Both the position numbers and the translations under genes were made by a program. From Microcaldota archaeon (GTDB taxonomy: Archaea; Micrarchaeota; Micrarchaeia; Anstonellales; Bilamarchaeaceae): a stretch of DNA of 64,000 bases. The notes below the pieces were generated by a model that saw only the letters and a program-made list of their open reading frames with translations, had not been told where the DNA came from and searched no databases. Location of the stretch: the NCBI GenBank assembly GCA_022627495.1, contig JAKEGJ010000003.1, positions 1 through 64,000 on the forward strand, written 5' to 3'. The stretch's first letter is position 1. Each line of letters starts with the position of its first letter. Shown here piece by piece: positions 2 through 35,291 of this stretch.

Positions 2-3000
2 ACGATACTAAACCCCCTGAACCAGACCTACAACGATTCAACGCCGGACCTTAACTTCACTGTCTCGGAGAATGCCACATGCTGGTACTACCTTGACGGC
101 GCAGGCCCGACCATGCTTCCAGGCTGCAACAACATAACCCTGCCAGGCCCGCTCACAGACGGCGGCCACAACGTCACAGTCTATGCAAACGACACCGCAG
201 GCAACACCAACTCCACTACCGTCATTTTCACGATAGACGCGACGCTGCCCGCAGTCACCATTATACTGCCCCAGAACACGACCTACGGCGTGAGCACGCT
301 TCCTTTGAACTACACTGCAAACGACACGAACCTGCAGTCCTGCTGGTACGTGCTTGACGGCGGTGCGCCCAACTATTCCATATCGAGCTGCAACAACGTC
401 ACATTGCCAGCCCTGGCAGACGGCGCCCACAATGTCACCGTCTACGCCAACGATTCCGCAGGCAATACGGGCTCAGACAGCGAATGGTTCAGCATAGACA
501 CCCTGCCCCCTAACGTAACAATCATATCCCCGGCAAACACTACATACCCGACGTCGATACCCATCCTCTACACCGCAGTGGACCCGAACCTGTACACCTG
601 CTGGATGGTCATCGACGGCATAACCACCGTGCCTCTTCCGGGCTGCGTCAACGGCTCAATCAGCACGTTCGATGGTCCGCACAATATCACGATATACGCA
701 AACGACACGTTCGGCCGGGAGGGCAACGATACAGAGTACTTCACTAAAATCACGAACTGCCCGATTATCTCCGTGCCCGGCCTCTTCACGATGGCTGGCA
801 ATTATATCGGAGCGCCCAATGACGCATCCGAGCTGCTGGACGGCCCCGATATGGCATGCGTGAAGATAGCGTCAAGCGACGTCGTCTTCGACTGCGCCGG
901 CTACAGCATAACCAACAACGGCACGAACAACGCCGCTGGCATAGTCATAAACGGCTCGCTGTCGGTGGACTACACGAACGTCACGATAATGAACTGCCCA
1001 TCGGTCGCCGGATACACCGAGGGCGTCTACCTCCACCACTCGAGCGGGGGCGCGGTGCAGAATTCCACTGCGTTGAGCGGCCTTGACGGCTTCAGGCTAT
1101 ACTATGCGGATGATAACGAACTGTCAGACAACACCGCATACAACAATTCCCGCAGCGGCTTCCTCCTGACAGAAAGCAACGGCAATGAACTGGCGGACGA
1201 CTACGCCTACGACAACGGCCAGTTCGGCTTCATAGCCAGCTCAAGCGCGAACAACAGCTTCCAAAACGGCATCGCCTCCAATTCGTCCATCGGTTTCTAC
1301 ATGCTCATGGGCTCAGGAAACAACCTGACGGACTGCATATCGAGAGGCAACAACGCAAGCGGCCTCTACGCGCGCGACGACCCGTCACTGCTCGTCGAAC
1401 GCATGCACTTCTATGACAACCTCTATGACTTCAGGGGCGAGGCGGTCAGCGGCTCGGATATGCCATACCAGATGTATAACGCGATTTTCGACAGCCCCGG
1501 CGGCGCGTTCGCCAACTTCACAAACCTATCCATCAACGACTCGATAGACTACAACACGTCCTATGTGATAGACTGGCAGCAGATGATAGCCCCGCCGGCC
1601 GGATCGTTCAGCTTCGAGCAGAAGTACGTTCTGATAAGCACATCCTTCGGGGCGGGCCAGATGACCAGCGTGGTATTCCACTGGACTGACGCCGAATCCT
1701 CTTCCCAGCCGTACTACAACGAGAGCAGGTTCTATCTGGGCAATTACTATTCCGCATCCTGGTCCAACGCGTCAGCTGCACTTGATACGGCTGCGTACAC
1801 GCTCACCTTGACAAACCAGACGCTGGACGGCAGGTTCGCCATACTCCAGCACAACACCACCGACCTTCCGCCAGCGGTCAACCTTGTTTCACCGGCAAAC
1901 GGCTCGGCATTCAACGTAGCATCGCTGAATTTCACGTTCAACGCGGTGGACGACAACTCGACGCAGCTCAACTGCTCCCTCAACCTGGACGGCGCACAGA
2001 ACGGAACCAACTCCTCGACGCAGAACGCAACGAATACCGCCTTCGCAATAAGCGGGCTCGCTGACGGGCTGCACCTATGGAACGTCTCGTGCACTGATGG
2101 CGCTATGAACACCAACACGAGCGAGACCTGGGAGTTCACAATAGACACGGCCGCACCCACGGTAACCATACAGTCCCCGGCCAACATCACATACGGTTCG
2201 GGATTTGTGGACCTCAATTACTCGGTCAACGACAGCAGCGGCATCTCATCGTGCTGGTACGTGCTTGACGGCGCCCCCGCGGTCGCCCTGCCTCCAGGCT
2301 GCTTCAATATTACCTTAGGCGTCCTGCCCAACGGCGGACATAACATGACCGTCTATGCGAACGACACGCTCGGCAATACCGGCTCCGCGACAGTAATATT
2401 CACGGTGGATACCAGCCTGCCCACTGTCCTTATTCTGTCTCCTGCCAACACCACCTACGCCGTCGCTACGCTGGACCTCGACTATTACGTGCTCGGCGCC
2501 AACATAGACAGCTGCTGGTATTCGCTTGACGGAGGCGCCAACACATCCCTGCCGGGATGCGCCAACGACACGCTTGTCGGGCTCGCTGACGGCGGGCACA
2601 ACGTGAGCGTATACGCGAACAACACCCTGGGACTCACGGGATACTTCACAAGGTACTTCACGGTGGACGCAACGCCGCCCGTGGTGAACATCACGTCCCC
2701 GACCAACTCCACGTACAACACCACGAGCATACCCCTCAACTACACGGCCACGGACAATTTCGGCATACACACCTGCTGGTATGTCCGTGATGGTGGAGCG
2801 CCAATCCCCCTGCCCGGCTGCCAGAACACGACGCTTTCATTCGCAAACGGCTCGCACAACATTACCGTCTACGCCAACGACAGCGCAGGAAACAACGCGT
2901 CAGACACGGAATACTTCACGGTCAATGTGACCGGCGGCGACGGGGATGACGGTGACGATGACGACCGCAAGAAGAACATGGTCGTCGATTACAGCTTCAT

Positions 3001-4234
3001 CTGCCCGGGCGATCTGGCCGCCTTCAACGTGACCACGCCCCCGGCGCCTGTCGCGAACGTAGAAATCAAGATAATATACGACACGTATCCGGCTTACTAC
3101 GTCGTCGACATTATCCATACCGGCAGCAACGGAACGGCTGATGTCGCCCTTAGCCAGAACGGCACATACACGTTCAGGGCAACCCGGGCGGACTATGTCC
3201 TCGTTGAAGGGGAATTCGATTTCACGGCATGCCCGCCTGAATTCGAATGCCAGGACGACGTAGACTGCCCCGGCGACTCGCAATGCGTTGCCGGAAACTG
3301 CGAGAAGATATCGTGCGACTGCGGCTATATCCAGAACTACAGCTGCGTCCGATACGCTTGCTGCGCGGACACCGATTGCCCAAGCGGCGAATCCTGCCTG
3401 GACAACCAGTGCAAGAAGAGATACGAATGCACATCGGATGGCGACTGCCTCGGCGCGCAATACTGCGACATCTCGCAGGGCGAAGCCGGCGGCGACTGCA
3501 AGGATGTGACAGGATGCGGCGAGGTGCAGGACCACGCGCTCGTGCCCTACGAGTTCCCCTACGGCTGCGCGATGGCTGAATGCCCCGCATGCCCGCAGCA
3601 ATTCCTCTGCAGGGAGAACATGTGCGTCAATTACAACCTGACCGCGCCCCCGACCGCTTTCGTGGGCGACAACATCACACTGAACGCGAGCGAAGGCCCA
3701 TCTCCTTGCAGGAACTGCAGCCTCGTAATCGTCTTCCCGGACAGGAGGCAGACCACCGTCCAGACGGACGGGAACGGCCAGTACGTATTGCCTGTGGCAA
3801 TGACAGGCTCATACTCGGCCAGCCTTGTAGTCGATGGGCAGACCATAACATCAATCGTCGTGGCTGCGATAACCCGGACGACCACGGACGATTCGCCATT
3901 GCCCGACTGGACGACCTTCTGCCTGCCCCTGCTGCTCATACTGCTGCTCCTGCTCCTCATCTTCTTCCTCTGGAGAAGGGGGAAGAAGGACATACGGGCA
4001 GCCGTTGTCACCGAAAGCCCGGCCATGGGCAAGAGCCTGGAGGTCAAGGTCTTCAGGAAGAACAAGGAGGCCGTGCCTAATGCGCGGGTGGACGTTTTCC
4101 TGGAAGGAAAGGCCGTCGCGCAGGGGTTGTCGAACAAATTCGGCAGGTTCAGCTTCATCCCGGGGGCGAAGGGACGCTACGCGATACACGTAAACGGCTC
4201 CAAGAGCCCGGAAGCGACCTTCATAATCGTCTAA
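2..4234 (+). CDS. Giant cell-surface protein with Ig-like repeats, beta-helix and C-terminal membrane anchor (5' truncated)
   Basis: The reading frame is open from the first bases, so the N-terminus lies outside the window. Seven repeats of about 80-90 residues carry a CWYVLDGG...LPGC core followed by HNVTVYANDTAGN, with two cysteines per repeat that could form a disulfide. Three (the first partial) precede and four follow a right-handed beta-helix-like region (about nt 750-1500; short N/G-rich rungs such as NSTALSGLDGFRL). After an acidic GDDGDDDD linker comes a cysteine-rich segment with C..D.DC motifs, an all-leucine membrane helix (about nt 3900-3970), the stop-transfer WRRGKKD and an 80-residue cytoplasmic beta-domain. 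NxS/T sequons are very frequent. This suggests an S-layer-associated adhesin or sensor; the ligand is unknown. It converges with the RNA ligase gene, overlapping it by 4 bp. Confidence 0.85.
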   Translation, partial: TILNPLNQTYNDSTPDLNFTVSENATCWYYLDGAGPTMLPGCNNITLPGPLTDGGHNVTVYANDTAGNTNSTTVIFTIDATLPAVTIILPQNTTYGVSTLPLNYTANDTNLQSCWYVLDGGAPNYSISSCNNVTLPALADGAHNVTVYANDSAGNTGSDSEWFSIDTLPPNVTIISPANTTYPTSIPILYTAVDPNLYTCWMVIDGITTVPLPGCVNGSISTFDGPHNITIYANDTFGREGNDTEYFTKITNCPIISVPGLFTMAGNYIGAPNDASELLDGPDMACVKIASSDVVFDCAGYSITNNGTNNAAGIVINGSLSVDYTNVTIMNCPSVAGYTEGVYLHHSSGGAVQNSTALSGLDGFRLYYADDNELSDNTAYNNSRSGFLLTESNGNELADDYAYDNGQFGFIASSSANNSFQNGIASNSSIGFYMLMGSGNNLTDCISRGNNASGLYARDDPSLLVERMHFYDNLYDFRGEAVSGSDMPYQMYNAIFDSPGGAFANFTNLSINDSIDYNTSYVIDWQQMIAPPAGSFSFEQKYVLISTSFGAGQMTSVVFHWTDAESSSQPYYNESRFYLGNYYSASWSNASAALDTAAYTLTLTNQTLDGRFAILQHNTTDLPPAVNLVSPANGSAFNVASLNFTFNAVDDNSTQLNCSLNLDGAQNGTNSSTQNATNTAFAISGLADGLHLWNVSCTDGAMNTNTSETWEFTIDTAAPTVTIQSPANITYGSGFVDLNYSVNDSSGISSCWYVLDGAPAVALPPGCFNITLGVLPNGGHNMTVYANDTLGNTGSATVIFTVDTSLPTVLILSPANTTYAVATLDLDYYVLGANIDSCWYSLDGGANTSLPGCANDTLVGLADGGHNVSVYANNTLGLTGYFTRYFTVDATPPVVNITSPTNSTYNTTSIPLNYTATDNFGIHTCWYVRDGGAPIPLPGCQNTTLSFANGSHNITVYANDSAGNNASDTEYFTVNVTGGDGDDGDDDDRKKNMVVDYSFICPGDLAAFNVTTPPAPVANVEIKIIYDTYPAYYVVDIIHTGSNGTADVALSQNGTYTFRATRADYVLVEGEFDFTACPPEFECQDDVDCPGDSQCVAGNCEKISCDCGYIQNYSCVRYACCADTDCPSGESCLDNQCKKRYECTSDGDCLGAQYCDISQGEAGGDCKDVTGCGEVQDHALVPYEFPYGCAMAECPACPQQFLCRENMCVNYNLTAPPTAFVGDNITLNASEGPSPCRNCSLVIVFPDRRQTTVQTDGNGQYVLPVAMTGSYSASLVVDGQTITSIVVAAITRTTTDDSPLPDWTTFCLPLLLILLLLLLIFFLWRRGKKDIRAAVVTESPAMGKSLEVKVFRKNKEAVPNARVDVFLEGKAVAQGLSNKFGRFSFIPGAKGRYAIHVNGSKSPEATFIIV

Positions 4235-25155: not shown

Positions 25156-25875
25156 ATGCTGCGCGGAGGGAAAGGGAGGGTCATCTGCTGGGACCTGGAC
25201 GAGACCACGGGTTCTTTTCGGGATTACGGCAGGATGCGCCTCACCCGCGGCATCAAGCCCCTGCTGGAGGGCCTGGGGGGGCTCGGGATACGCCACGTCA
25301 TAACAACCGCGGCTTCCCGGGAGCATGCCGAGACCGCGCTTGGAAACTTCGGCGTCATGGGATTATACGAGAGGATATTCGACGCCAGTGAAATCTGCGA
25401 CTCGGTTTACAACAAATACTACGCGCCTGTGGCGTCTTTTCTTGGCATGGGGCACCAGGACGCGGCAGACCGCATCCTGGTCGTGGGAAACCTGCCCCGG
25501 GACGCTCCGGCGGATTTGGACCTGACGTTCCTCTATCATCCGGAAGGGAGCGAATTCGATGCCGCGGTATACATGAAAATCATCGGGAGGCTGATGCACC
25601 TCTCTGATTCGTGGGCCGAAGCGCACGCGCTTATGGCCGGCCAGAACACCCACAGCATCGCCGTGTCCGGCTTCGACGGCGGCCAGCAGTTCGTCGAGGG
25701 TATCTGGGTGGGCGTGGGCCGCCACCTCCGCAATGTGCGTCCGGAAAAGCCCTCGGACCGCGTTATCTCGGTGTATTCTGTGCCGGATGGCTACCGCCCG
25801 GCGGAATCGGAAAAAACAAAAATAAATGATGGGGCGGAATCCGTCATTCCGCCTGGACCGTGCCGGTCACAGTAG
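25156..25875 (+). CDS. HAD-superfamily hydrolase-like protein
   Basis: Motif I is CWDLDETTGSF (DxD), motif II TTAASRE, and GNLPRDAPADLDLTFLYH resembles motif IV. The 239-aa protein has a C-terminal extension (YSVPDGYRPAESEK) with no known domain. The substrate cannot be inferred. A TATA box (TTATTTAAAA, 25121-25130) lies 26-35 bases upstream. The 3' end overlaps the convergent pilin gene by 32 bp. Confidence 0.75.
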   Translation: MLRGGKGRVICWDLDETTGSFRDYGRMRLTRGIKPLLEGLGGLGIRHVITTAASREHAETALGNFGVMGLYERIFDASEICDSVYNKYYAPVASFLGMGHQDAADRILVVGNLPRDAPADLDLTFLYHPEGSEFDAAVYMKIIGRLMHLSDSWAEAHALMAGQNTHSIAVSGFDGGQQFVEGIWVGVGRHLRNVRPEKPSDRVISVYSVPDGYRPAESEKTKINDGAESVIPPGPCRSQ

Positions 25876-26449
25876 CAACGGCGACCCTGTCCGGCGCATC
25901 GGGCTGGTCTTCGGAGAAGCGGTAAAGGACGCCGAGGCTTCCCCTGAAATTCGAGTTGGCCGCGAGCTTCACGTCCGTTGTGCCGTCCGCCTCCTTGCAG
26001 TCGACGCTGTTTGTTATGTCCGCAGTCGGCCCGCCTATCGTGACGCTCTCGCCTGCCGCCATCGGCCTCTCGGTGAACCCGGTCGTGTCGATGTCCGCTT
26101 TCCTGACATTGCCGGCCGGAGCCGTGGTGCAGAGCACGCCTTTAAGTATGATGGACTTGCCCTGCGTGTTGTCGAGCTGGAAGAGCAGCCTGACGTTGTT
26201 GTCCGTATCTGCCACCAGCGTGTGGGGCTTCACGTTGCATGTGAATCCCGGCTGCGTGAACTGGCAGGCCTCCGGAGCCTTCAGGGAAGGCAGGACGACC
26301 GCGACCAGTATGGCCAGCACTATCAGGATGACGAAAAGCGCGAGGCCGTACGTGATCAGGTATTCCATCACCGCCTGCCCCTTGAAAACCCTCTTCTGCT
26401 TCTCAAAGTGGGGTTTTCCCTCCCCATCTTGGATGTTTTTTGAATTCAT
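25844..26449 (-). CDS. Type IV pilin-like protein with class III signal peptide
   Basis: From ATG 26449 the product carries a 25-residue basic leader and then KGQAVMEYLITYGLALFVIL. Processing is expected between Gly and Gln, with Glu at +5 and a long assembly helix. The beta-rich head has cysteines in CQFTQPGFTC and VDC. It is the last gene of the pilus operon and follows the second platform protein within 15 bases, so it is the likely major subunit for this machine. Confidence 0.88.
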   Translation of the reverse strand: MNSKNIQDGEGKPHFEKQKRVFKGQAVMEYLITYGLALFVILIVLAILVAVVLPSLKAPEACQFTQPGFTCNVKPHTLVADTDNNVRLLFQLDNTQGKSIILKGVLCTTAPAGNVRKADIDTTGFTERPMAAGESVTIGGPTADITNSVDCKEADGTTDVKLAANSNFRGSLGVLYRFSEDQPDAPDRVAVATVTGTVQAE

Positions 26450-26462
26450 ACAAACCACTCAA

Positions 26463-27527
26463 TCATACGATTGTTGCGAATATTGATTCCACCATGGTGA
26501 TGACCAGCAGGTACACGAGGTAAGCCCCGCCCAGGACGAACGGGAAGTACTTCATCCCCTGGTTCTTCGAGCCGGTCCGTATCGCGCTCACGATGAACGA
26601 CGAGATGAGCGCGGTCACGAATATCGTCGGGATGCTGAACCAGAAGAAATCGCCGGAGCTTATCACCGCGCCGGAGAACTGGACCGTCGAGAACGCCGAG
26701 AACGCGCTTCCGCTTGTTCCTGAGAGGGAGCCCGCCTGCGGGGCAATCTTCTCGAAGACCGAAATCAGTTTCGACGCCACGGCGAATAGGAAGGGCGCAC
26801 CTACTATGGATGCGAAAAGGACGAATATCTCATAAAGGACGAGCGACGCTGCAATCTCCTTCTTCATTATTATCGTGTTACGCACGTCGTCCGTGGTCCG
26901 CTCGAGGACGTTGGTCAGCTCGCCGCCTGTGGCGGTCGCCTGCTTGAGGAGCAGGATGGTCCTCTTGAACACGCGGGAGTCGAACCTGCCCCCCAGTTTG
27001 TCCAGGGTGTTCTCCAGGCTCTCGCCCGAAAACGAGCCCTTGATGACGCCCTTCACCTCGGTGCTCAGCAGGCCGAATTCGGGCTTGGCCGAATACCACA
27101 TGGCCTGGTCGAGAGTCATCCCGGCTTTTATGTTGGATGCCACCAGGGTGAGGAAGTCCGGGAGCGCAGTCTCGAGCTTGTTGCGCCGGTCGTCGGCTTT
27201 CATGAGCAGGTAGCTCGAAATGAGCGTCATGGTGGCGAGATAGACCATGCCGAACGACGCGGCCAGGACCAAAAGCGCTATGAGCGGGAACGGGAGGACT
27301 ACGAAGCTGTTGATTGTGCTGCTTATCATGTCCCCGGTCGGCTGGTAAGCGAGGAGAAGCATCGCAAGGAATACGGTCACTACGATGACATTCAGGCTCA
27401 CGTATCCCGCGAACGAGTCGGCGGGCATGTTGACTCCCGCAGTGCTGAGGTCTTTTTCCAGGCCCTTGATGCGCTCCCTGCTGAAGAAGAGCCTTCCGGC
27501 GTTTTCGAATATGCTTTCGTTGGTCAT
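26463..27527 (-). CDS. Type II/IV secretion platform protein (T2SF domain, TadC/FlaJ-like)
   Basis: The 354-aa membrane protein has hydrophobic clusters at about 45-85, 90-125 and 225-345. The cytoplasmic T2SF motif is LPDFLTLVASNIKAGMTLDQAMWYSAKPEFG...LDKLGGRFDSRVFKR, spread over residues 135-215. Together with the preceding gene it would form the pilus platform in the membrane, turned by the ATPase encoded upstream. GGTGGTG before ATG 27527 supports this start over GTG 27536. Confidence 0.88.
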   Translation of the reverse strand: MTNESIFENAGRLFFSRERIKGLEKDLSTAGVNMPADSFAGYVSLNVIVVTVFLAMLLLAYQPTGDMISSTINSFVVLPFPLIALLVLAASFGMVYLATMTLISSYLLMKADDRRNKLETALPDFLTLVASNIKAGMTLDQAMWYSAKPEFGLLSTEVKGVIKGSFSGESLENTLDKLGGRFDSRVFKRTILLLKQATATGGELTNVLERTTDDVRNTIIMKKEIAASLVLYEIFVLFASIVGAPFLFAVASKLISVFEKIAPQAGSLSGTSGSAFSAFSTVQFSGAVISSGDFFWFSIPTIFVTALISSFIVSAIRTGSKNQGMKYFPFVLGGAYLVYLLVITMVESIFATIV

Positions 27528-27536
27528 GAGCACCAC

Positions 27537-28433
27537 CTATATGAGGTATTTCGGCCGCGACGTCTCGATGAACCCGAGGAACAGGACCTGGATTATCGTT
27601 ATGACCAGGAAGACCACCGCGAGCATCCACGGGGGGAAGCTGCGCCCGCCCATGGCGGAGAATATGACTGTCATCAGCACCACGCCAAGGGTGGGCACGA
27701 TGATGCCGAACACCATGTAGAACATGACTATCGGCGTCAGCTTCTGGCTGTATTCCTTGAGGGATATCATCTGCTCCTTGGATATCTGGTCCAGGACGCC
27801 TTCGAGCGAGTCGCCGACGTCGGCGCCGCTCCCCAGGGCGTTCGCTATCTGCATCAGCAGCCTTGTGAAATACTTGGACGGGTTGTACTGGACCACGTCG
27901 CGTATCGCCTGGGTGACCGGCACTCCCAGGACCACCTGGTCGACTATCTTCGCGAACTCCCGGCTCACAGCCCCGTAGCCGCTGGAGGCGCCGACGAACG
28001 TGTCGAAGAGGGGCATGCCGGACTTGAGCGCTATCACGATGTGCCTGCCTGCGAACACAATTTCGTAGTCCATCTCCTTCTGGCGGCGGATTATCCCCGC
28101 CTCCGGGTAGAGCATCAGGTAGGCGAATATCACGAGGGGTATGGTGATGATGGGCGCAAGGGCCATCAGCAGGAAGATGGGGATGTTGTTCTTGAGCCCA
28201 GCCTCCAGCCCCGATAGCATGAACAGGTATGCCACGACGATAAGCCCGGCCGATATGAATATCGTGGACGCGACGACCTTCTCCAAAAAGTCGACGGGAT
28301 TGTCGTTCATGTCCGCAATCTTAAGCTTCTTCCGCAAATCCGGGAACCTGGACGCTAGGATTTCCGCGATGGGGGTGATGGGCCCTCTTTTCCTCTGCAG
28401 AGATTTCTCTTCATCCCTTTCCTTGACTGCCAT
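27537..28433 (-). CDS. Type II/IV secretion platform protein (T2SF domain, TadB-like)
   Basis: The 298-aa membrane protein has a basic N-terminus (MAVKERDEEKSLQRKRG). It has two helices near 55-110 and two near the C-terminus, with the T2SF signature ALKSGMPLFDTFVGASSGYGAVSREFAKIV between them. Archaeal archaellum platforms (FlaJ) carry two such domains in one chain; here they are on two consecutive genes, as in Tad systems. The next gene starts 9 bases after this stop. Confidence 0.88.
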   Translation of the reverse strand: MAVKERDEEKSLQRKRGPITPIAEILASRFPDLRKKLKIADMNDNPVDFLEKVVASTIFISAGLIVVAYLFMLSGLEAGLKNNIPIFLLMALAPIITIPLVIFAYLMLYPEAGIIRRQKEMDYEIVFAGRHIVIALKSGMPLFDTFVGASSGYGAVSREFAKIVDQVVLGVPVTQAIRDVVQYNPSKYFTRLLMQIANALGSGADVGDSLEGVLDQISKEQMISLKEYSQKLTPIVMFYMVFGIIVPTLGVVLMTVIFSAMGGRSFPPWMLAVVFLVITIIQVLFLGFIETSRPKYLI

Positions 28434-28435
28434 GC

Positions 28436-30052
28436 TTAGCCCTCCATCTGGCTGAAGTACTTCTTCACCATCGCATCATTCAGCCCCTTGTCCTTGGCCA
28501 TCAGCTCCTTTGCCTTGAATATCGCTTCGGCCTTGGCCAGCTGCTTCCGCTCGTATCTCTTGTAGTAATCCGGGTCCTTGGAATGCAGGAAGTAGAGCAG
28601 CGTACCCTCGTCGGTCTCGTTTATCTCCTTGACCAGGTCATATGCCTTCGCCTCTGCTTCCTTCGGCGTCTCTTCGGGCTTCTTGAAAATCTCGGTCCCC
28701 GCGACCTCTATGAGGTTCTCTATCTGCCTTCCGACGATGCCTTTCACCGCCGTGAATTCCAGGTCATATTTCGAATTGACGTATTCCAGCCTTTCCTCGA
28801 CGCGGCCGCGCGTCTCCTTCTCCTCCGGCGCGAGCGAATCGCGTATCTTCTCGAGCTCGGCCGCATGCTTCTTGCCGGTGAACTCCCGGTACTTCCGGAG
28901 CACGTCCGGAAGCTGCTCTACGAGCGATTCGACCGAGAAGACGAACGACTCGAACGTCTTCTTCCTCGCCGAGGCGTCTTCGGTCGTGGATATCTGGTCG
29001 TAGAACTTCTTCTTTATCTCCGCGACCTGTTTGTTGTAGGAATCGATTATGCTGTCTTTCGTCTGGGCGAGCTCGGCCTGCTGTGTCGAGAGCATGGCGT
29101 CCAAGAGCTTCATGTGGGCTTCAGCCTGAGCCCCGACCTTCTTCGCGCCGGGAGCCTGCCTGGCCCCTCCCGCGCCGCCGGCCTGCTGGCCCGCAAGCAT
29201 GTTTTTCAGGACCGTTATCTGGAGCTTTATTTCCTCCCTGCGCGAAGTGACCTTCTCCTTGAACAGCTGCTTGGTCAAATCGAGCATCTTCTTCTTGAGC
29301 GTCATCTCGTCCGCTTTCTCGCCGACCGCTGCGCGAATCTGCTCTTCCATCTGGTCATAGCGCTTCGTCGCGGCCTTGTCGGGGCTCTCCCGGAGCGCCG
29401 GAGGCACGGCTGCGACTATGATGCGCTTCTCGGCCGGCGCCTCGACGCTCGGCTCCGGCGCGGCCCTGGTTCTGGGCGCTTCAGGTGGCCTGGGGGCTTC
29501 CGCCGCATGTTCCGCTCCCCCCTTCTCCTCTGTCGCTTCTGGCGCTGCTTCGGGTGGCGGGGGCCCGGCTTCCGGCTTCGGAGCCTCCCTCTCAATCTCT
29601 ATTCCCCCTGGCGCCTCCCTGCTCTCGAATTCCACGGCCTCGACCGCCTTCGGCTCTTCCGGCCTGGCCTCTTCAGGCGGCTTCTCTATGGCAATCGGCT
29701 CCTTGCCGACCTCCTCGGCCGTCTTCAGCGTCTCCGCGGTCATCTGCAGGAGCTTCGTCTCCACCTCGCCGGTCTCTGCTTTCGGCGCGCGGGTTTCCGC
29801 CCCGGCCGCTTCAGGCGCCCCCTCTGCGCCGGCCCCGCCGGCTGCGAGTATGCCCATGTTCGCGGTGCTGATGATTTTCTGCGAGCGCTCGTACATGTTG
29901 AGCATGTCCGGGTAGGCGAGGTCGACGTATTCCCTCGGCTCTAAGTCGAGCGTCCTCTCTATGGCTATGTCCCCCTTGTACGGGGCGTATTCCATCTGCT
30001 TCTTCTCGAGCCGCTTGGCCTCCTCTATCGCGCCTTCGAATTCGTCAGACAC
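28436..30052 (-). CDS. Cytoplasmic low-complexity and coiled-coil protein of the pilus operon
   Basis: The 538-aa product lacks membrane segments. Residues 1-65 are charged helices, residues 70-220 a Pro/Ala/Glu-rich linker (for example EAGPPPPEAAPEATEEKGG), and 225-538 mostly helix with heptad character (KKKMLDLTKQLFKEKVTSRREE). The end carries a YKRYERKQLAKAEAIFKAKELM helix. It lies between the ATPase and platform genes, with 2-30 bases on either side, so an adaptor or scaffold at the pilus base is likely. I do not recognise the family. GTG 30052 is taken; TTG 30055 is possible. Confidence 0.75.
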   Translation of the reverse strand: MSDEFEGAIEEAKRLEKKQMEYAPYKGDIAIERTLDLEPREYVDLAYPDMLNMYERSQKIISTANMGILAAGGAGAEGAPEAAGAETRAPKAETGEVETKLLQMTAETLKTAEEVGKEPIAIEKPPEEARPEEPKAVEAVEFESREAPGGIEIEREAPKPEAGPPPPEAAPEATEEKGGAEHAAEAPRPPEAPRTRAAPEPSVEAPAEKRIIVAAVPPALRESPDKAATKRYDQMEEQIRAAVGEKADEMTLKKKMLDLTKQLFKEKVTSRREEIKLQITVLKNMLAGQQAGGAGGARQAPGAKKVGAQAEAHMKLLDAMLSTQQAELAQTKDSIIDSYNKQVAEIKKKFYDQISTTEDASARKKTFESFVFSVESLVEQLPDVLRKYREFTGKKHAAELEKIRDSLAPEEKETRGRVEERLEYVNSKYDLEFTAVKGIVGRQIENLIEVAGTEIFKKPEETPKEAEAKAYDLVKEINETDEGTLLYFLHSKDPDYYKRYERKQLAKAEAIFKAKELMAKDKGLNDAMVKKYFSQMEG

Positions 30053-30079
30053 CAAAGTCCCCTCTTGCCTTACTCATAA

Positions 30080-31705
30080 TCACACGTTTATCCCGGATTG
30101 GGACCGGAAGTCCCAGCTCTTCCCTTTCTTCACCGCATCTATGACGTCTTCGGTGCTAAGATAATAATTTGAGACTATCTGGCCGACCTGGTCAACATCG
30201 TCGTAGCCGCGTTTGACCATCCAGTCCAGGACTCCCATCTTCTCCTCGATGTCGTCCTCTATCTCCTTGTCGCTCATGCCGGAGTACAGCGATAATGTTT
30301 CGACAAGGGTGGCCATCCTTGACACCGCCTTCATCTTGTCGCTTTTAAGGTCCCAGCGGTAGATGACGTTCGACTCGCCCTTCTTCGTCACTTCTGCGAA
30401 TTCAAGGACGCGCCTTATGTTGAACCTCCGGTGCCTGAACGTGACCACTATTCCCGAGAGGGCATCGAGCATCTCGTGCGGGATGTTTATCGGCGGGTTC
30501 GTGAGCCTGGAAATCGTCTGTTCGGCGTTGTCCGCGTGCAATGTCGAGTAAACGCTGTGGCCGGTGTGCATGGCCTCGAACATGACTTCAGCCTCCCGCT
30601 GGCGCCGGATTTCACCGACAAGTATGCGGTCCGGCCTCTGGCGCAGCGCATTCACCATCAGGTCGAGCATTGTGACCTCGCCCTTGCCCTCGGGGTTCGC
30701 TTCCCTGACCGTCATGGGCACCCAGTGCAGGAAGGAGGGCAGCGTAAGCTCCCTCGTGTCCTCAATGGTTATTATGCGCTGGTTGGCCGGAATCAGGCCC
30801 GCCATCGCATTCAAAAACGACGTCTTTCCGCTGCCGGTTCCGCCTGTCACGAGCAGAGAGAGCTCGTTCTGCATGCACAGCCATATCAGGGCGGCGACAT
30901 CGGTCGTGACGGTCTTGGATTTCAGGAAGCTCGTTATCGTCCAGGGGTTCCTGGAGAACTTGCGTATGGTTATCGTGTTGCCGAAGGACGAAATCGGGAA
31001 CAGCGTCGCATTGACACGGTCCCCCGAGGGCAGGTGCGCGTCGAGGGTGGGGTTCAGGATGTTTATCTGCCTGCCCACCTTCCTCGCAATCATGGACGCG
31101 TAGTCGTAGACCAGCTCCTCGTTCTTCAGCCTGAGGTTGGTCTTGCACCAGCCGAACTTCTTATGGTATATCCAGACGGGCTCGCGGGCGTTGTTCACGG
31201 TGACTTCTTCAAGCTGGTCGTCGGAGAGGAGCGCTTCCATCTCGCCAAGGCCCAGCGTCTTCTGGAGCAGGAAGACCGCGAGGACGTCCATCTTCTCGGG
31301 CGGGAGCGTGGGGAAGTTGCGCTTGAGTATCTTTTTCGCGGCATCGAGGAACTTCGCCTTGACCTCGTCGTATTTCTTGGGGTCGAGTATCTCGCTGATG
31401 TCCAGCTTGACCTCGGTCACCAGCTCGCCTTTCAGCTTGGTCTCGAGTATGAGCTTGGTGCCCTCCGCTATGCCGGGGATGGTTATCTCGTATCTGGGGA
31501 CGAAATCCCCCCTGCGGAATATCTTGACTTCCACCGGGAGCCCCTCGGAACTGAACGCGTAAGCGGCAAGAAGCGCGACCTTCGGCTTCGGCCCTGCGGC
31601 CGCATCCGGCGCAGATGGCTGGGGGGACCCTTCCGTCTCCCTGGCATCTCCCCCGCCTCCGTCTATTCGCCTTGCAACCGTATCCTTGATGTTCTCCTTG
31701 GGCAT
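30080..31705 (-). CDS. Pilus assembly/secretion ATPase (FlaI/TadA/GspE family)
   Basis: The 541-aa protein has an N-terminal beta-rich region with a variable Pro-rich start. The RecA-like motor follows: GGTGSGKTS (Walker A), IEDTREL (Asp box), RILVGEIRR (Walker B) and HTGHSVYSTLHA (His box). It hydrolyses ATP at the membrane to add or remove pilin subunits. It is the second gene of the operon, followed within 30 bases by the coiled-coil protein. Confidence 0.94.
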   Translation of the reverse strand: MPKENIKDTVARRIDGGGGDARETEGSPQPSAPDAAAGPKPKVALLAAYAFSSEGLPVEVKIFRRGDFVPRYEITIPGIAEGTKLILETKLKGELVTEVKLDISEILDPKKYDEVKAKFLDAAKKILKRNFPTLPPEKMDVLAVFLLQKTLGLGEMEALLSDDQLEEVTVNNAREPVWIYHKKFGWCKTNLRLKNEELVYDYASMIARKVGRQINILNPTLDAHLPSGDRVNATLFPISSFGNTITIRKFSRNPWTITSFLKSKTVTTDVAALIWLCMQNELSLLVTGGTGSGKTSFLNAMAGLIPANQRIITIEDTRELTLPSFLHWVPMTVREANPEGKGEVTMLDLMVNALRQRPDRILVGEIRRQREAEVMFEAMHTGHSVYSTLHADNAEQTISRLTNPPINIPHEMLDALSGIVVTFRHRRFNIRRVLEFAEVTKKGESNVIYRWDLKSDKMKAVSRMATLVETLSLYSGMSDKEIEDDIEEKMGVLDWMVKRGYDDVDQVGQIVSNYYLSTEDVIDAVKKGKSWDFRSQSGINV

Positions 31706-31746
31706 CCCATCACCAACATGTATCCATCTGCTTGTTTATAAAGCGG

Positions 31747-33507
31747 TCATTCTTCCCAGAGCCTTTGGATGAGCTTCTTCAGCTCCTCCCTTTTCCTGCG
31801 GAATTCCATCTCCTCTTCCCTGGTGAGCTCCAATTTCTGGCGGACGCCCCTCTCCTCGATTGCCGCCCCGCCCCCGTCGCCTTCTCCCCCGCCGCCCCCC
31901 CCGGAAGAGGATGCGCCCGGAGCCCCCGACTGGCCGCCTCCCATGCCGCCGGTCCGGATCTCCAGCAGCTTCGCCTCGCGCGAAAGGAGGGTGACCCTCT
32001 TGTTGAGGTTCTCGGACACGGTCGTCAAATCCTCAAGCGACGCCCTTATATCCTCCAGCGTCTTCTTCTTGTCGCGGATTTCCTCCGCCACCTTGACGAT
32101 GTCCTGCACCTGCCCCCCCTTTAGGGACTCCTGCAGCTTCTGGGCATCGGCCTTGAGGCTCTGGAGCTGGGCGGCCGATTCCTCCCTGATGTGGTCGACC
32201 TTCTGGTCCATCGCATCGAGCTGCTGCTGGTACCCTTCTATGGAAGGGACGATGCGCTCCTTGATTTTCTGGAATGTCAGATACGTGCTCTTCTCGTCCG
32301 AAAGCGCGGCTTCCAGGGCGTCCAGGTCCTTCCTCACCTGCTCGGATTTCTCCTCCATCTTCCTTGTCAGCTCGGTGAACTGCTTCGCGGTCAGCTGGCG
32401 CCCGCCGACGGCCTCGAGGAGCTTCTCAAGGTCCGCTGTCTTTTGGGCCATCGCCTCTTCCTCTTCCCTGAGCTTCTCAAGGTCCTCCATGACCCTGTCC
32501 TGGCTGGGGAATTTCTTTAGCACATTCTTGGCGACATCGACAGAATCGCCGAGCCTTTCCATCAGTTCGGCATTCTTCTTCACCTGCGCGGTGACGCGGC
32601 CCGTCCTTTCGGCAAGGCTGTCTGCTTCCTGGGAAAGGGCTGCCATCTCAGACTTGAGCGCCCCTATCTTGTCCTCCTGCCCCATTATGGATTCCGCCAC
32701 GCTCTTCAATATCTCGGAGCTTTCATGGAGGCTCAGCATGTCCTGCCTCATCTGCGCGTTCCGCGAACGGAGGCCGGCCAAATCCTTCTGCATCGATTCG
32801 AACTTTTTCTTTATGTCCCGGACCGACGGCATGGAAATTTCTTCCGGGCCTTCCTGCGCGCCCGCGCGCTTGCGGAGGACGTCCATCTCCTGGCGGAGCA
32901 TCGCAAGCTCGTCGCCCAGGCGTTCTGCGTTCCCCATCAGCTCCTCGCTCTTGCTCGGGCCGCCGCCTCCGAGTCCCAGCGAGGCGATATCCCTCCTGAC
33001 TTCGGAAAGCGAGTTCTTGACCTCGGAAAGGGACCCTTCCATCGCGGACAATTCGGCCTGGAACCTGGAAAACACGTCCTCGGAAATGGTTTTGGCGGCA
33101 GGGACCGGGGCGACCAGCTTCTCGAGGGCGTCCATCCTCCCGTAAACCCGGGCGTAGAACCTGTCGAACGATTCGCGCAAAGTATCGAGTTCGCCTGCCT
33201 CGGACGATATCTTCGCCTTTACCCCGTCGACCTCGTTCTCTATCCCCTTCTTCTCATCGTAGAACGATTCTTTTTCCGCCGCCACTTCCTCTTCGGTGGG
33301 CTTCACCCACACAAGGTACACGCGCGTGAGCCGGTATTCGATGCGCAGGATGCCCTCCTCCTCCAGCACCCTGGCCCAGTCCTCTATCGTCTCCTGGGGG
33401 ATGTTCAGCACCGAAGCCGCTTCGTCCAGCTCGGTCCTCTGTTTTTCCTTGACAAGCCGGACAAGGGCATCGACACCTGTTGTGATTAGTAGCTCGTCGA
33501 ACTCCAT
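31747..33507 (-). CDS. Winged-helix plus long coiled-coil protein, first gene of the pilus operon
   Basis: From ATG 33507 the product has 586 aa. Residues 1-70 form a winged-helix-like domain (VRLVKEKQRTELDEAASVLN, then EEEGILRIEYRLTRVYLVWV). The remainder, to about residue 530, is a nearly continuous coiled coil. A Gly/Ser-rich stretch near the end (SSSGGGGGGEGDGGG) precedes a final helix. No membrane segment is seen. It heads the operon of ATPase, platform and pilin genes, so it probably works at the cytoplasmic base, either structurally or as a regulator. Family not recognised. A 92-base gap separates it from the divergent gene. Confidence 0.8.
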   Translation of the reverse strand: MEFDELLITTGVDALVRLVKEKQRTELDEAASVLNIPQETIEDWARVLEEEGILRIEYRLTRVYLVWVKPTEEEVAAEKESFYDEKKGIENEVDGVKAKISSEAGELDTLRESFDRFYARVYGRMDALEKLVAPVPAAKTISEDVFSRFQAELSAMEGSLSEVKNSLSEVRRDIASLGLGGGGPSKSEELMGNAERLGDELAMLRQEMDVLRKRAGAQEGPEEISMPSVRDIKKKFESMQKDLAGLRSRNAQMRQDMLSLHESSEILKSVAESIMGQEDKIGALKSEMAALSQEADSLAERTGRVTAQVKKNAELMERLGDSVDVAKNVLKKFPSQDRVMEDLEKLREEEEAMAQKTADLEKLLEAVGGRQLTAKQFTELTRKMEEKSEQVRKDLDALEAALSDEKSTYLTFQKIKERIVPSIEGYQQQLDAMDQKVDHIREESAAQLQSLKADAQKLQESLKGGQVQDIVKVAEEIRDKKKTLEDIRASLEDLTTVSENLNKRVTLLSREAKLLEIRTGGMGGGQSGAPGASSSGGGGGGEGDGGGAAIEERGVRQKLELTREEEMEFRRKREELKKLIQRLWEE

Positions 33508-33599
33508 GGTGCAATATAAATTAAGTATGTTAATAAACATTTTGATGATATTCTACTCGTTTACGAAGTAGCAGTTGTATTCATCCGTGCGTGGTCCTA
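33508..33599. promoter_or_regulatory. Divergent promoter region between pilus operon and four-winged-helix gene
   Basis: This AT-rich 92-base gap contains TTTATATT and GTTTATTAAC on the minus strand, about 10-36 bases before ATG 33507, and GTGGT before ATG 33600 on the plus strand. The two transcripts probably share control here. Confidence 0.5.
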
Positions 33600-35291
33600 A
33601 TGGCAAAAGGCGGCGATTACCGAATCAAGAAGCTTGAGAAAGGTCCCCTGCAGCGCTTCAAGAACCAGAACCTTCTTATAAAGAAGTATGGCGAAGTGGG
33701 GCTCCAGATCTACAAGGCCATAACCGGCAAGAGGACCACCCGGGAACTCCAGAAGGATTTGGGCGTGGAGGATTCCATGTTCGACCAGGTGCTTAGCTAC
33801 ATGCAGGATGCAGGCATGGTCGAACTCGAGCCCACTACGGGCAAGGAAGCCGCATCAGCGGAAGCCGCCGCGACCGCTCCGGAGGAAACGGCCGGGGGGG
33901 AGGGGGAGCCTGAAAAGGCCGAAGAGGAGAAGCCCTCCCGCAACCTGGAAGAGATACCGCCCGAGGAAGAGGTGGAGCCCGAGGGGGAGCCTCCGCCCCT
34001 TGAAGAGAAGCCGCGGAAGAAAGCAGGGGAGGACGAAGCGCCCGGGGAGGGGATTTCTCCGGAGGAACCTCCTCCCGAAGAAGAGGCCCAGCCCGGAGAA
34101 GGTGAAACGCTCGAAGCTGAGGCGCCGCAGGAAGAGGAGTTCGCGTTCGAGGAGCCGCGCGAGGCGAAGAAGAAGCCGAAGCCGGCCGAAGAGGAAATCT
34201 CGTTCGAGGAAATCAAGCCCATCGAGTTCGGCGAGGAGGAGGGGCGCCCGGCGGAAAAGACGGCGCCCGGAAGGAGGAGGATGGGCACCCGCGCAGGGCC
34301 TGATGCGGAATCCGAGACTGCGGAGGAAATCGAGCCTGTGGGTTTCGAACCCGAGGAGCCTGAGGCTCCGCCTCCGGAACCTGAGCCCGAAGCCCCTCCG
34401 GAAGATGAGGGGGGCATATCGTACGAGGAGGAGGCGCCTCCCAAATACCCGGAGGAGCCTGAGCTGAGCCCTGTCGAGAAGATCATCTCAGACAAGTACG
34501 GGGACATCGGCCTCCAGGTCTATTCCCTTATAGACGGGCAGAGGACCGCGGAGGAGATTATGCGCGATACGGGCCTGACCGAACCCAAACTCGTCGAGAT
34601 ACTGGATTTCATGGACGAGCAGGGCATAATCAAGCTCGACTATCCAAAGGGCGCCGGTGCAGGCGCGCCAGCCCAGCCCCCCTCGGGGGCTGGTTTCGGA
34701 GGCCCGCAGGCGGCCGGCCCGGCGATGCAGCAGGCGCCCCCGCCCGGGCAGAGGAAAGAGGAGGGAGGCTTCAACCCCCTGACCGAGGGCGAGGAATCGC
34801 TGGATGAGGCCCGCGGCGTCGCATCCCCGGTGGAAGTCCCCATCAAGGCCCCGATGGACATTGTGAAATCGGTGCAGACGAAAGCTAAAATCATGCTGAA
34901 ATACGGCGATAAGGGCAGCAAGCTTATGGAGCAGCTGGACGGAAAGAACGACCTTATCGACATCTCGCTCAAGCTGGACGTCCCCCTCTTCACCATCTAT
35001 GACATGCTCCGGTTCATGATGGAGAGCGGCATGATTATCATGAAGCCCATGTCCCGCGCGGATGTGCGGAAGAAATACGGCGACGACGGCTATGCCGTGT
35101 ACAAGAAATTCGGCAAGGAAGGCCTGATGCTCTACGAGCTAATCGGCAAGGAGCTGACAATCCGGCAGATGGCCGACAAGATCACCCGGGACAAGGCGAA
35201 AATCATCGACATGTTCATCTTCATCCACAAGGTGCTGGGGATTGAGCTGCCGATTGACCGCGACGTGCTCTCAAAGCAGCTCGGCATCTGA
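33600..35291 (+). CDS. Protein with four winged-helix-like repeats and an acidic linker
   Basis: From ATG 33600 the product has 563 aa. Four units of about 50 residues share the pattern KYG-x-x-G-x-x-(I/L)-Y...G...T.....D.G and a final hydrophobic wing: near 29-77 (KYGEVGLQIYKAITGKRTT), 299-347 (KYGDIGLQVYSLIDGQRTA), 433-482 (KYGDKGSKLMEQLDG) and 505-555 (KFGKEGLMLYELIGKELT). The region between units 1 and 2 is a roughly 220-residue Glu/Pro-rich linker. No membrane segment. It stands back to back with the pilus operon. A regulator or scaffold is plausible; DNA binding is not shown. Confidence 0.75.
   Translation: MAKGGDYRIKKLEKGPLQRFKNQNLLIKKYGEVGLQIYKAITGKRTTRELQKDLGVEDSMFDQVLSYMQDAGMVELEPTTGKEAASAEAAATAPEETAGGEGEPEKAEEEKPSRNLEEIPPEEEVEPEGEPPPLEEKPRKKAGEDEAPGEGISPEEPPPEEEAQPGEGETLEAEAPQEEEFAFEEPREAKKKPKPAEEEISFEEIKPIEFGEEEGRPAEKTAPGRRRMGTRAGPDAESETAEEIEPVGFEPEEPEAPPPEPEPEAPPEDEGGISYEEEAPPKYPEEPELSPVEKIISDKYGDIGLQVYSLIDGQRTAEEIMRDTGLTEPKLVEILDFMDEQGIIKLDYPKGAGAGAPAQPPSGAGFGGPQAAGPAMQQAPPPGQRKEEGGFNPLTEGEESLDEARGVASPVEVPIKAPMDIVKSVQTKAKIMLKYGDKGSKLMEQLDGKNDLIDISLKLDVPLFTIYDMLRFMMESGMIIMKPMSRADVRKKYGDDGYAVYKKFGKEGLMLYELIGKELTIRQMADKITRDKAKIIDMFIFIHKVLGIELPIDRDVLSKQLGI

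What the first reader, a model, noticed from the sequence alone, without database searches (positions are those of the whole stretch)
25844..35291. Pilus engine with extra cytoplasmic winged-helix and coiled-coil partners
The sequence shows one reverse-strand run of winged-helix/coiled-coil protein, secretion ATPase, low-complexity coiled-coil protein, two platform proteins and a pilin, with a protein of four winged-helix-like repeats divergent from it. ATPase, platform and pilin are established type IV pilus or Tad parts. The three large cytoplasmic proteins are not standard parts. I infer a dedicated cytoplasmic base or sensing module.
Basis: partly seen in the sequence, partly recalled or inferred. 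Interest (0 to 1): 0.72.

Follow-up and report, generated by a model that had tools for sequence, protein, structure and literature searches.

The report
Winged-helix partner of archaeal pilus motor
In a whole class of small uncultivated archaea, the motor protein that builds type IV pili is accompanied by a winged-helix domain, carried on a neighbouring coiled-coil protein or fused to the motor itself, which suggests an undescribed cytoplasmic part of the pilus machine.

Summary
Window 25844-35291 holds a six-gene reverse-strand run (winged-helix/coiled-coil protein 'wHCC', FlaI/GspE-type ATPase, coiled-coil 'CC', two T2SSF platforms, class III pilin) and a divergent multi-winged-helix gene 'wH4'. 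The association is not local. In a phylum-wide sample (all one class), 83 of the 90 genomes holding both have the ~70-residue wHCC winged helix directly upstream of, or fused to, the secretion ATPase; 101 of 121 ATPases have it. The same domain is fused to the N-terminus of a paralogous ATPase clade, including one in this genome (hhalign probability 98.5, E 3e-15; wH4 control 49). A third ATPase clade has it on a two-CBS-domain protein, a fourth on a short protein; each mode marks one ATPase clade. wH4 tracks the window-type ATPase and was lost together with it. The best reading is that wHCC supplies in trans an ancestral ATPase N-terminal module, displayed on a ~450-residue coiled coil, with wH4 as further partner. 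Physical contact and exact role are inferred; no complex was modelled. The literature searched does not describe it. It is a new variant of a known machine.

The parts
31747..33507 (-). wHCC: N-terminal winged helix (about 75 aa), ~450 aa of helix/coiled coil, Gly-rich linker, conserved C-terminal helix (EEEMEFRRKREELKKLIQRLWEE)
   Evidence: mechanical ORF runs to 33540 but homologues start at 33507
33289..33507 (-). winged-helix domain of wHCC (the ATPase-linked module)
   Evidence: 64% mean pairwise identity among 21 homologues against 22-28% for the coil
30080..31705 (-). type IV filament secretion ATPase (FlaI/GspE2-like; Walker A GGTGSGKT), without the N-terminal winged helix present in its paralogue
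28436..30055 (-). CC: low-complexity / helical cytoplasmic protein between ATPase and platform genes; length 210-687 aa among relatives
27537..28433 (-). platform protein a (T2SSF/TadC-like)
26463..27536 (-). platform protein b (T2SSF/TadC-like)
25844..26458 (-). prepilin with class III signal (K-G|Q-A-V-M-E-Y-L)
   Evidence: read directly; homologous pilin at the same place in relatives
33508..33599 (.). 92-bp divergent intergenic region between wHCC and wH4
33600..35291 (+). wH4: winged helices separated by a ~207-residue linker of net charge -49; conserved C-terminal domain
33648..33836 (+). wH4 winged helix 1
34458..34649 (+). wH4 winged helix 2 (net charge -7)
34863..35288 (+). wH4 two further winged-helix-like C-terminal repeats (weaker evidence)

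Best explanation
This is a type IV pilus assembly machine whose ATPase has a detachable N-terminal winged-helix module. In this clade the module is not on the ATPase but at the head of wHCC, encoded directly upstream. The winged helix most likely docks on the ATPase N-terminal domains (a protein-protein contact, not DNA binding), so that up to six wHCC copies would ring the motor and project a long coiled coil into the cytoplasm or along the membrane. The conserved C-terminal helix of wHCC would be the far contact, probably to wH4, whose winged helices on an acidic tether would gather several partners. CC, encoded between ATPase and platform, would be a further variable adaptor. The assembly would position or gate the pilus motor, like FliH/SctL stators or the archaellum's ArlH/ArlCDE. 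SHOWN: gene order, conservation, domain homology and fusion, co-occurrence and joint loss, architecture-by-clade. INFERRED: physical contact, stoichiometry, wH4 contact, gating or anchoring.
For: Whole-genome domain search: 83 of 90 genomes with both have the domain directly upstream on the same strand or fused; 101 of 121 ATPases. A model of the wHCC head alone, run on 3682 ORFs, finds at E<=4e-3 only wHCC, its paralogue wHCC2, ATPase N-termini, and small genes directly upstream of ATPases; none of the wH4 proteins hits. hhalign of wHCC head vs ATPase N-terminus: prob 98.5, E 2.8e-15, 66 columns; vs wH4 prob 49, 34 columns. The reciprocal model returns wHCC first. A 73-aa stand-alone winged helix sits upstream of the ATPase in one lineage. 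ATPase tree: four clades, each with one mode (fused, CBS-linked, short, long coiled coil); the genome's unrelated third ATPase is the outgroup without it. 34 of 40 order members have the window-type ATPase, wHCC and wH4; G004, G008 and G018 lack all three. wHCC head is acidic (median net charge -6; helix 3 median -3). The head is the most conserved part of wHCC, then its C-terminal helix.
Against: No direct evidence of contact; complexes could not be predicted, and single-chain models from two-sequence alignments are weak (pLDDT 59 and 52). In seven sampled genomes the domain gene is not next to the ATPase (one is a contig edge, one an inserted restriction-modification gene). G021 has wH4 but no wHCC or window-type ATPase found; G020 and G030 have wH4 but only a CBS-type ATPase found (81-85% complete assemblies). 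A paralogue, wHCC2, sits next to ribosomal protein uL16 rather than pilus genes, so the domain is not used only by pili. Fused-type heads are charge-neutral, so the acidity argument holds only for wHCC. wH4 distribution follows the ATPase clade, so 33/33 is partly shared ancestry.
Confidence: 0.6

Rival explanations
1. wHCC and wH4 are DNA-binding regulators of the pilus operon; divergent orientation and winged helices are typical of local transcription factors, and the ATPase link is only genomic.
For: wH4 passes the Pfam cut-off for TrmB (39.8 vs 25.6 bits); divergent 92-bp intergenic region; the paralogous heads resemble Lrp and TFE winged helices in sequence (E about 1e-3).
Against: The same domain is fused to the ATPase itself in another clade; wHCC helix 3 is acidic in all homologues (range -4 to -1); wH4 helix 3 of domains 1 and 2 has median charge -2 and -4, with a linker of charge about -48; wHCC is ~450 aa of coiled coil; other local transcription factors do not accompany the ATPase class-wide.
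Confidence: 0.15
2. The module is a sensor/gate: the winged helix is a common docking plug and the attached part (two CBS domains, KaiC-linked fusion, coiled coil plus wH4) conveys a different signal to the motor in each clade.
For: CBS domains at E 1e-16 and 5e-19 on the upstream gene in one ATPase clade; KaiC-family gene in the fused-type operons; swapping of attached parts by clade.
Against: wHCC, CC and wH4 have no recognised ligand-binding domain; only three CBS cases were inspected. It overlaps with the main explanation and differs only in the purpose of the attached part here.
Confidence: 0.2
3. The winged helix lets the motor touch DNA, as the FtsK gamma winged helix does, in a DNA-uptake or transfer pilus.
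For: FtsK gamma is among weak sequence matches of the fused-type domain (E 0.01); type IV pili serve DNA uptake in many organisms (established knowledge).
Against: Acidic wHCC head; no competence or DNA-transfer gene seen in the operon in the loci read; the match is within the general winged-helix background.
Confidence: 0.05

Closest known systems
Archaeal type IV pili (Makarova, Koonin and Albers 2016, PMC4858521)
   Same: FlaI/GspE-type ATPase, TadC/GspF platforms and class III pilin in one operon; two platform genes as in their clade 1 and 2 loci. They also list cytoplasmic coiled-coil and alpha-helical proteins at some pilus loci (arCOG07564, 05610, 7479).
   Different: The text of that census has no winged-helix protein upstream of the ATPase and no fusion of one to the ATPase (terms searched, sections 11, 16, 17 read); supplementary tables were not available here.
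Archaellum motor (ArlI with ArlH and the ArlX or ArlCDE ring)
   Same: Cytoplasmic proteins with coiled coils docking on the homologous ATPase; possible functional analogue.
   Different: ArlD/E family absent from the genome; ATPase below the ArlI equivalog cut-off (272.6 vs 550). A 2025 review (PMC12024892) regards ArlH and ring proteins as unique to archaella, other superfamily members assembling without them.
DPANN pilus loci in archaeal 'dark matter' surveys (PMC6393860, PMC4158269)
   Same: Pilus ATPase and TadC with many uncharacterised neighbours in DPANN genomes.
   Different: There the unknown proteins are read as diverse pilins; no cytoplasmic winged-helix subunit is described in the passages found.
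TFE / Lrp / TrmB winged-helix domains
   Same: Fold class of the head domain.
   Different: No Pfam family covers the head domain (the 73-aa stand-alone form has no match above cut-off); not transcription factor architecture.
FliH/SctL stator of flagellar and type III secretion ATPases
   Same: Coiled-coil protein carrying an ATPase-binding element (from general knowledge; analogy only).
   Different: No sequence relation tested or claimed; different ATPase family.

Membership tests
Archaeal type IV pilus (type IV filament superfamily) | Secretion ATPase of PF00437 with intact Walker A | tested here: met
   E 3.5e-41; GGTGSGKT in the sequence
Archaeal type IV pilus (type IV filament superfamily) | GspF/TadC platform protein(s) | tested here: met
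   PF00482 E 7e-18 and 6e-13
Archaeal type IV pilus (type IV filament superfamily) | Pilin with class III signal peptide and a prepilin peptidase in the genome | tested here: met
   KGQAVMEYLITYG motif; PF01478 at G000:C2:14862-15194
Archaeal type IV pilus (type IV filament superfamily) | A filament is assembled | not testable with these tools
   uncultivated MAG
Archaellum | ArlD/E (PF04659) ring proteins | tested here: not met
   no match in own genome, controls ring; genome 82% complete
Archaellum | ATPase of the ArlI equivalog model | tested here: not met
   272.6 bits against cut-off 550
Archaellum | ArlH (KaiC-like) in the same locus | tested here: not met
   none in the window operon; KaiC gene only at the other pilus locus
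Tad pilus | TadA equivalog ATPase | tested here: not met
   196.9 against cut-off 373
TrmB-type transcription regulator (for wH4) | TrmB winged helix above Pfam cut-off | tested here: met
   39.8 vs 25.6 bits, two stretches
TrmB-type transcription regulator (for wH4) | Recognition helix suited to DNA (basic) | tested here: not met
   median charge of helix 3: -2 and -4; charge alone is not proof
TrmB-type transcription regulator (for wH4) | Binds DNA | not testable with these tools
   needs EMSA
SMC/Rad50-like coiled-coil ATPase (for wHCC) | ATPase head and curated cut-off | tested here: not met
   41 vs 300 and 38 vs 567 bits, matches in the coil only
ATPase-docking winged-helix module (proposed here) | Homology to the domain fused to secretion ATPases | tested here: met
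   control 44
ATPase-docking winged-helix module (proposed here) | Physical binding to the ATPase | not testable with these tools
   no complex prediction on hand
Halobacterial clade 4F coiled-coil protein arCOG07564 | Sequence homology to wHCC or CC | not tested
   no arCOG sequence set in the tools

The most novel reading that the evidence does not exclude
Type IV pili of an entire archaeal class are driven by ATPases with an undescribed interchangeable winged-helix docking module, on which evolution has mounted CBS sensors, coiled-coil arms or nothing; in the window's order the arm and wH4 form a cytoplasmic ring or anchor, the first such assembly in a non-archaellum type IV filament of archaea.
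Probability: 0.35. Interest if true: 0.82.

Novelty: new variant of a known kind. Interest (0 to 1): 0.62.

Why it matters
Archaeal type IV pilus motors are usually described as ATPase plus platform, with cytoplasmic docking proteins thought to be a speciality of the archaellum. A class-wide ATPase-linked module, exchangeable between fused and separate forms, gives a concrete handle on how these motors are positioned or regulated. It offers small proteins (even a 73-aa form) for structural work, and lets many 'hypothetical' proteins of these small-genome archaea be annotated as motor partners. Pili may matter in such organisms because many are thought to live by contact with host cells.

Tried and rejected
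Archaellum reading: rejected. SMC/Rad50-type reading of wHCC from coiled-coil hits: rejected, matches lie in the coil only and are far below cut-offs. Defence-system hits (LmuB, JetC, Csa3): coiled-coil or winged-helix background. Generic winged-helix similarity as the cause of the fusion match: tested with wH4 as control and with whole-genome searches, rejected. Foldseek of the wH4 model against PDB: nothing at E<=0.001, best RNA polymerase III 39-kDa winged helix at 0.09. PDB sequence searches with the head domain: only weak transcription-factor winged helices; alignment of the fused ATPase to known ATPase structures starts at residue 137 or later, beyond the head domain. One search failed for wrong coordinates and was repeated. 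The tables were copied by hand into; ATPase rows weaker than E 1e-110 and one 42-residue fragment (G000:C7:45551) were left out. The first row of alignment A1 lacks its mechanical first residue by a coordinate slip, without effect on the domain. The organism could not be named; one congener is 'archaeon isolate DeMMO3_13' and DeMMO archaea include Woesearchaeia, Micrarchaeia and Iainarchaeia (PMC10805038).

Full report
OBSERVATION. The window lies in a 1.45-Mb archaeal draft genome (82% complete). Between 25844 and 35291 the sequence encodes, on the reverse strand and in transcription order, wHCC, a secretion ATPase, CC, two T2SSF platform proteins and a pilin, with 0-41 nt between genes; wH4 reads away from wHCC. 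Pfam confirms ATPase, both platforms and a TrmB-type winged helix in two stretches of wH4. The pilin carries the archaeal class III signal (read directly), and a prepilin peptidase exists elsewhere. Homologues place the starts at 33507 (wHCC) and 33600 (wH4), leaving a 92-bp divergent promoter region.

CONSERVATION IN THE ORDER. wH4 was found in 37 and wHCC-related sequence in all of 40 relatives searched (own genome included; in some of the latter only the paralogue wHCC2). Reading the neighbourhoods shows wHCC - ATPase - CC - platform - platform - pilin with divergent wH4 as the prevailing layout, between apgM/MCM and the eS8/Cgi121/metG block. The window-type ATPase (57-91% identity) is present in 34 of the 40; all 34 have wHCC and wH4. 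G004, G008 and G018 lack all three. G020, G021 and G030 keep wH4 but no window-type ATPase was found (81-85% complete). In G029, G031 and G036 wH4 has moved away while wHCC stays beside the ATPase; in G003, G027, G028, G035 and G038 the wHCC/wH4 pair stays together away from the ATPase. CC homologues form one linked cluster of 23 across the order with lengths from 210 to 687 aa, so CC is positionally conserved but fast evolving.

THE DOMAIN IS SHARED WITH THE MOTOR. The genome has two further PF00437 ATPases. One, on C14, begins with a winged helix. A profile built only from 72 residues of wHCC heads, run against 3682 ORFs from all loci, matched wHCC, a paralogue family wHCC2, the N-termini of this second ATPase family (E 1e-9 to 4e-3), and small genes directly upstream of ATPases, and nothing else; wH4 proteins, with winged helices of their own, were in the set and did not match. 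The reverse profile ranks wHCC first. Profile-profile comparison gives probability 98.5% and E 2.8e-15 over 66 columns, against 49% over 34 columns for wH4. This is a fusion/split pair, the usual genomic sign that two proteins work together.

THE ASSOCIATION IS CLASS-WIDE. In a sample of 97 genomes of the phylum (all in one class), the head domain occurs in 91 and the FlaI/GspE-type ATPase, at the strict threshold used, in 92. Of 90 with both, 83 have the domain directly upstream on the same strand or fused, and 101 of 121 such ATPases are so accompanied. With roughly a thousand genes per genome, chance adjacency would be near 0.1% per genome (estimate). Reading 20 further loci showed domain gene - ATPase - (200-330 aa gene) - platform - platform in families outside the order, including one where the upstream gene is only 73 aa, a bare winged helix. 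A FastTree of 75 ATPases splits by mode of attachment: CBS-CBS-winged helix upstream (CBS at E 1e-16 and 5e-19), fused, short upstream protein, long coiled-coil protein upstream; the third own ATPase (C9) is the outgroup without the domain. Members labelled 'none' inside the coiled-coil clade include known separations (L107, L110, L111, L112, L125, L065) and split or misread genes. The simplest history is one ancient association followed by changes of what hangs on the winged helix.

wH4. In the same 97 genomes wH4 is found in 33, exactly those with the highest-scoring, window-like ATPase (734 bits or more). Since that score also tracks relatedness, the joint losses in the order are the better evidence. 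wH4 has two clear winged helices, a linker of net charge about -48 and a conserved C-terminal region.

HOW IT MOST LIKELY WORKS. The head domain is the most conserved part of wHCC (64% mean pairwise identity against 22-28% for the coil), followed by the C-terminal helix (45%); this fits a two-ended connector. The predicted secondary structure of the head is H-H-H-E-E, the winged-helix order, though at low confidence, and the rest is helix. The head and its helix 3 are acidic, which argues against DNA binding. I therefore propose that wHCC provides in trans the N-terminal module that the paralogue carries in cis, docks on the ATPase ring, and links it through a long coiled coil to wH4 or to another cellular structure, positioning or gating the motor. 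Contact, stoichiometry and purpose are inferred. Rivals: local DNA-binding regulators; a sensing plug; a DNA-contacting motor domain.

COMPARISON WITH THE KNOWN. The machine is an archaeal type IV pilus; nearest solved ATPases are Archaeoglobus GspE2 and FlaI, whose alignment does not reach the head domain. The published census of archaeal pili lists cytoplasmic accessory proteins, including a halobacterial coiled-coil protein, but its text has no such winged-helix partner (PMC4858521). Dark-matter surveys mention DPANN pilus loci with unknown proteins read as pilins (PMC6393860). A recent archaellum review treats cytoplasmic docking and ring proteins as unique to archaella (PMC12024892). I know of no description of this module; the literature check covers open-access text only.

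LIMITS. MAG incompleteness affects absence calls. The search stayed inside one phylum. Structure models rest on two sequences each. No complexes, expression or phenotype data.

Noticed in passing
L067-L086 (e.g. L074:668-2764, L073:7884-9758, L077:8494-10239); own genome G000:C10:1-1968 (L156): A paralogue, wHCC2 (same winged-helix head, different coiled coil, 420-700 aa), is widespread in the order and usually sits beside the gene for ribosomal protein uL16/L10e, not pilus genes. Function unknown.
   Followed up: partly
L113:1022-1699, L108:4922-5584, L104:1892-2401: Two-CBS-domain proteins ending in the same winged helix lie directly upstream of another secretion ATPase, suggesting a nucleotide-sensing version of the motor partner.
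   Followed up: partly
L005:3318-5099 (G000:C14): A pilin-like protein (class III-type start GQASMELLL) in the second pilus locus ends in a run of RTX-like GGxGxD calcium-binding repeats; possibly a pilus adhesin.
   Followed up: no
L005:2609-3340 and L075:3920-4600: KaiC-family ATPase genes head the operons whose secretion ATPase carries the fused winged helix.
   Followed up: partly
L065:4393-7284 (G039): A 963-aa protein that reads as a type I restriction-modification methylase/specificity fusion is inserted between wHCC and the ATPase.
   Followed up: no
L004:7268-10230 (G000:C9): A third, distant ATPase plus a 516-aa double platform protein without a winged-helix partner; outgroup in the tree.
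   Followed up: partly
window 2-4234: 1410-aa surface protein with PKD, beta-helix and many Ig-like domains at the window edge.
   Followed up: no
L054 and L116 (G022): A predicted 1875-aa open frame on the same strand lies between wHCC and the ATPase in one genome.
   Followed up: no
L137:11570-12559, L140:11638-12339: In other families of the class the slot between ATPase and platform holds a 200-330 aa protein family without recognised domains, unrelated by simple search to CC.
   Followed up: partly
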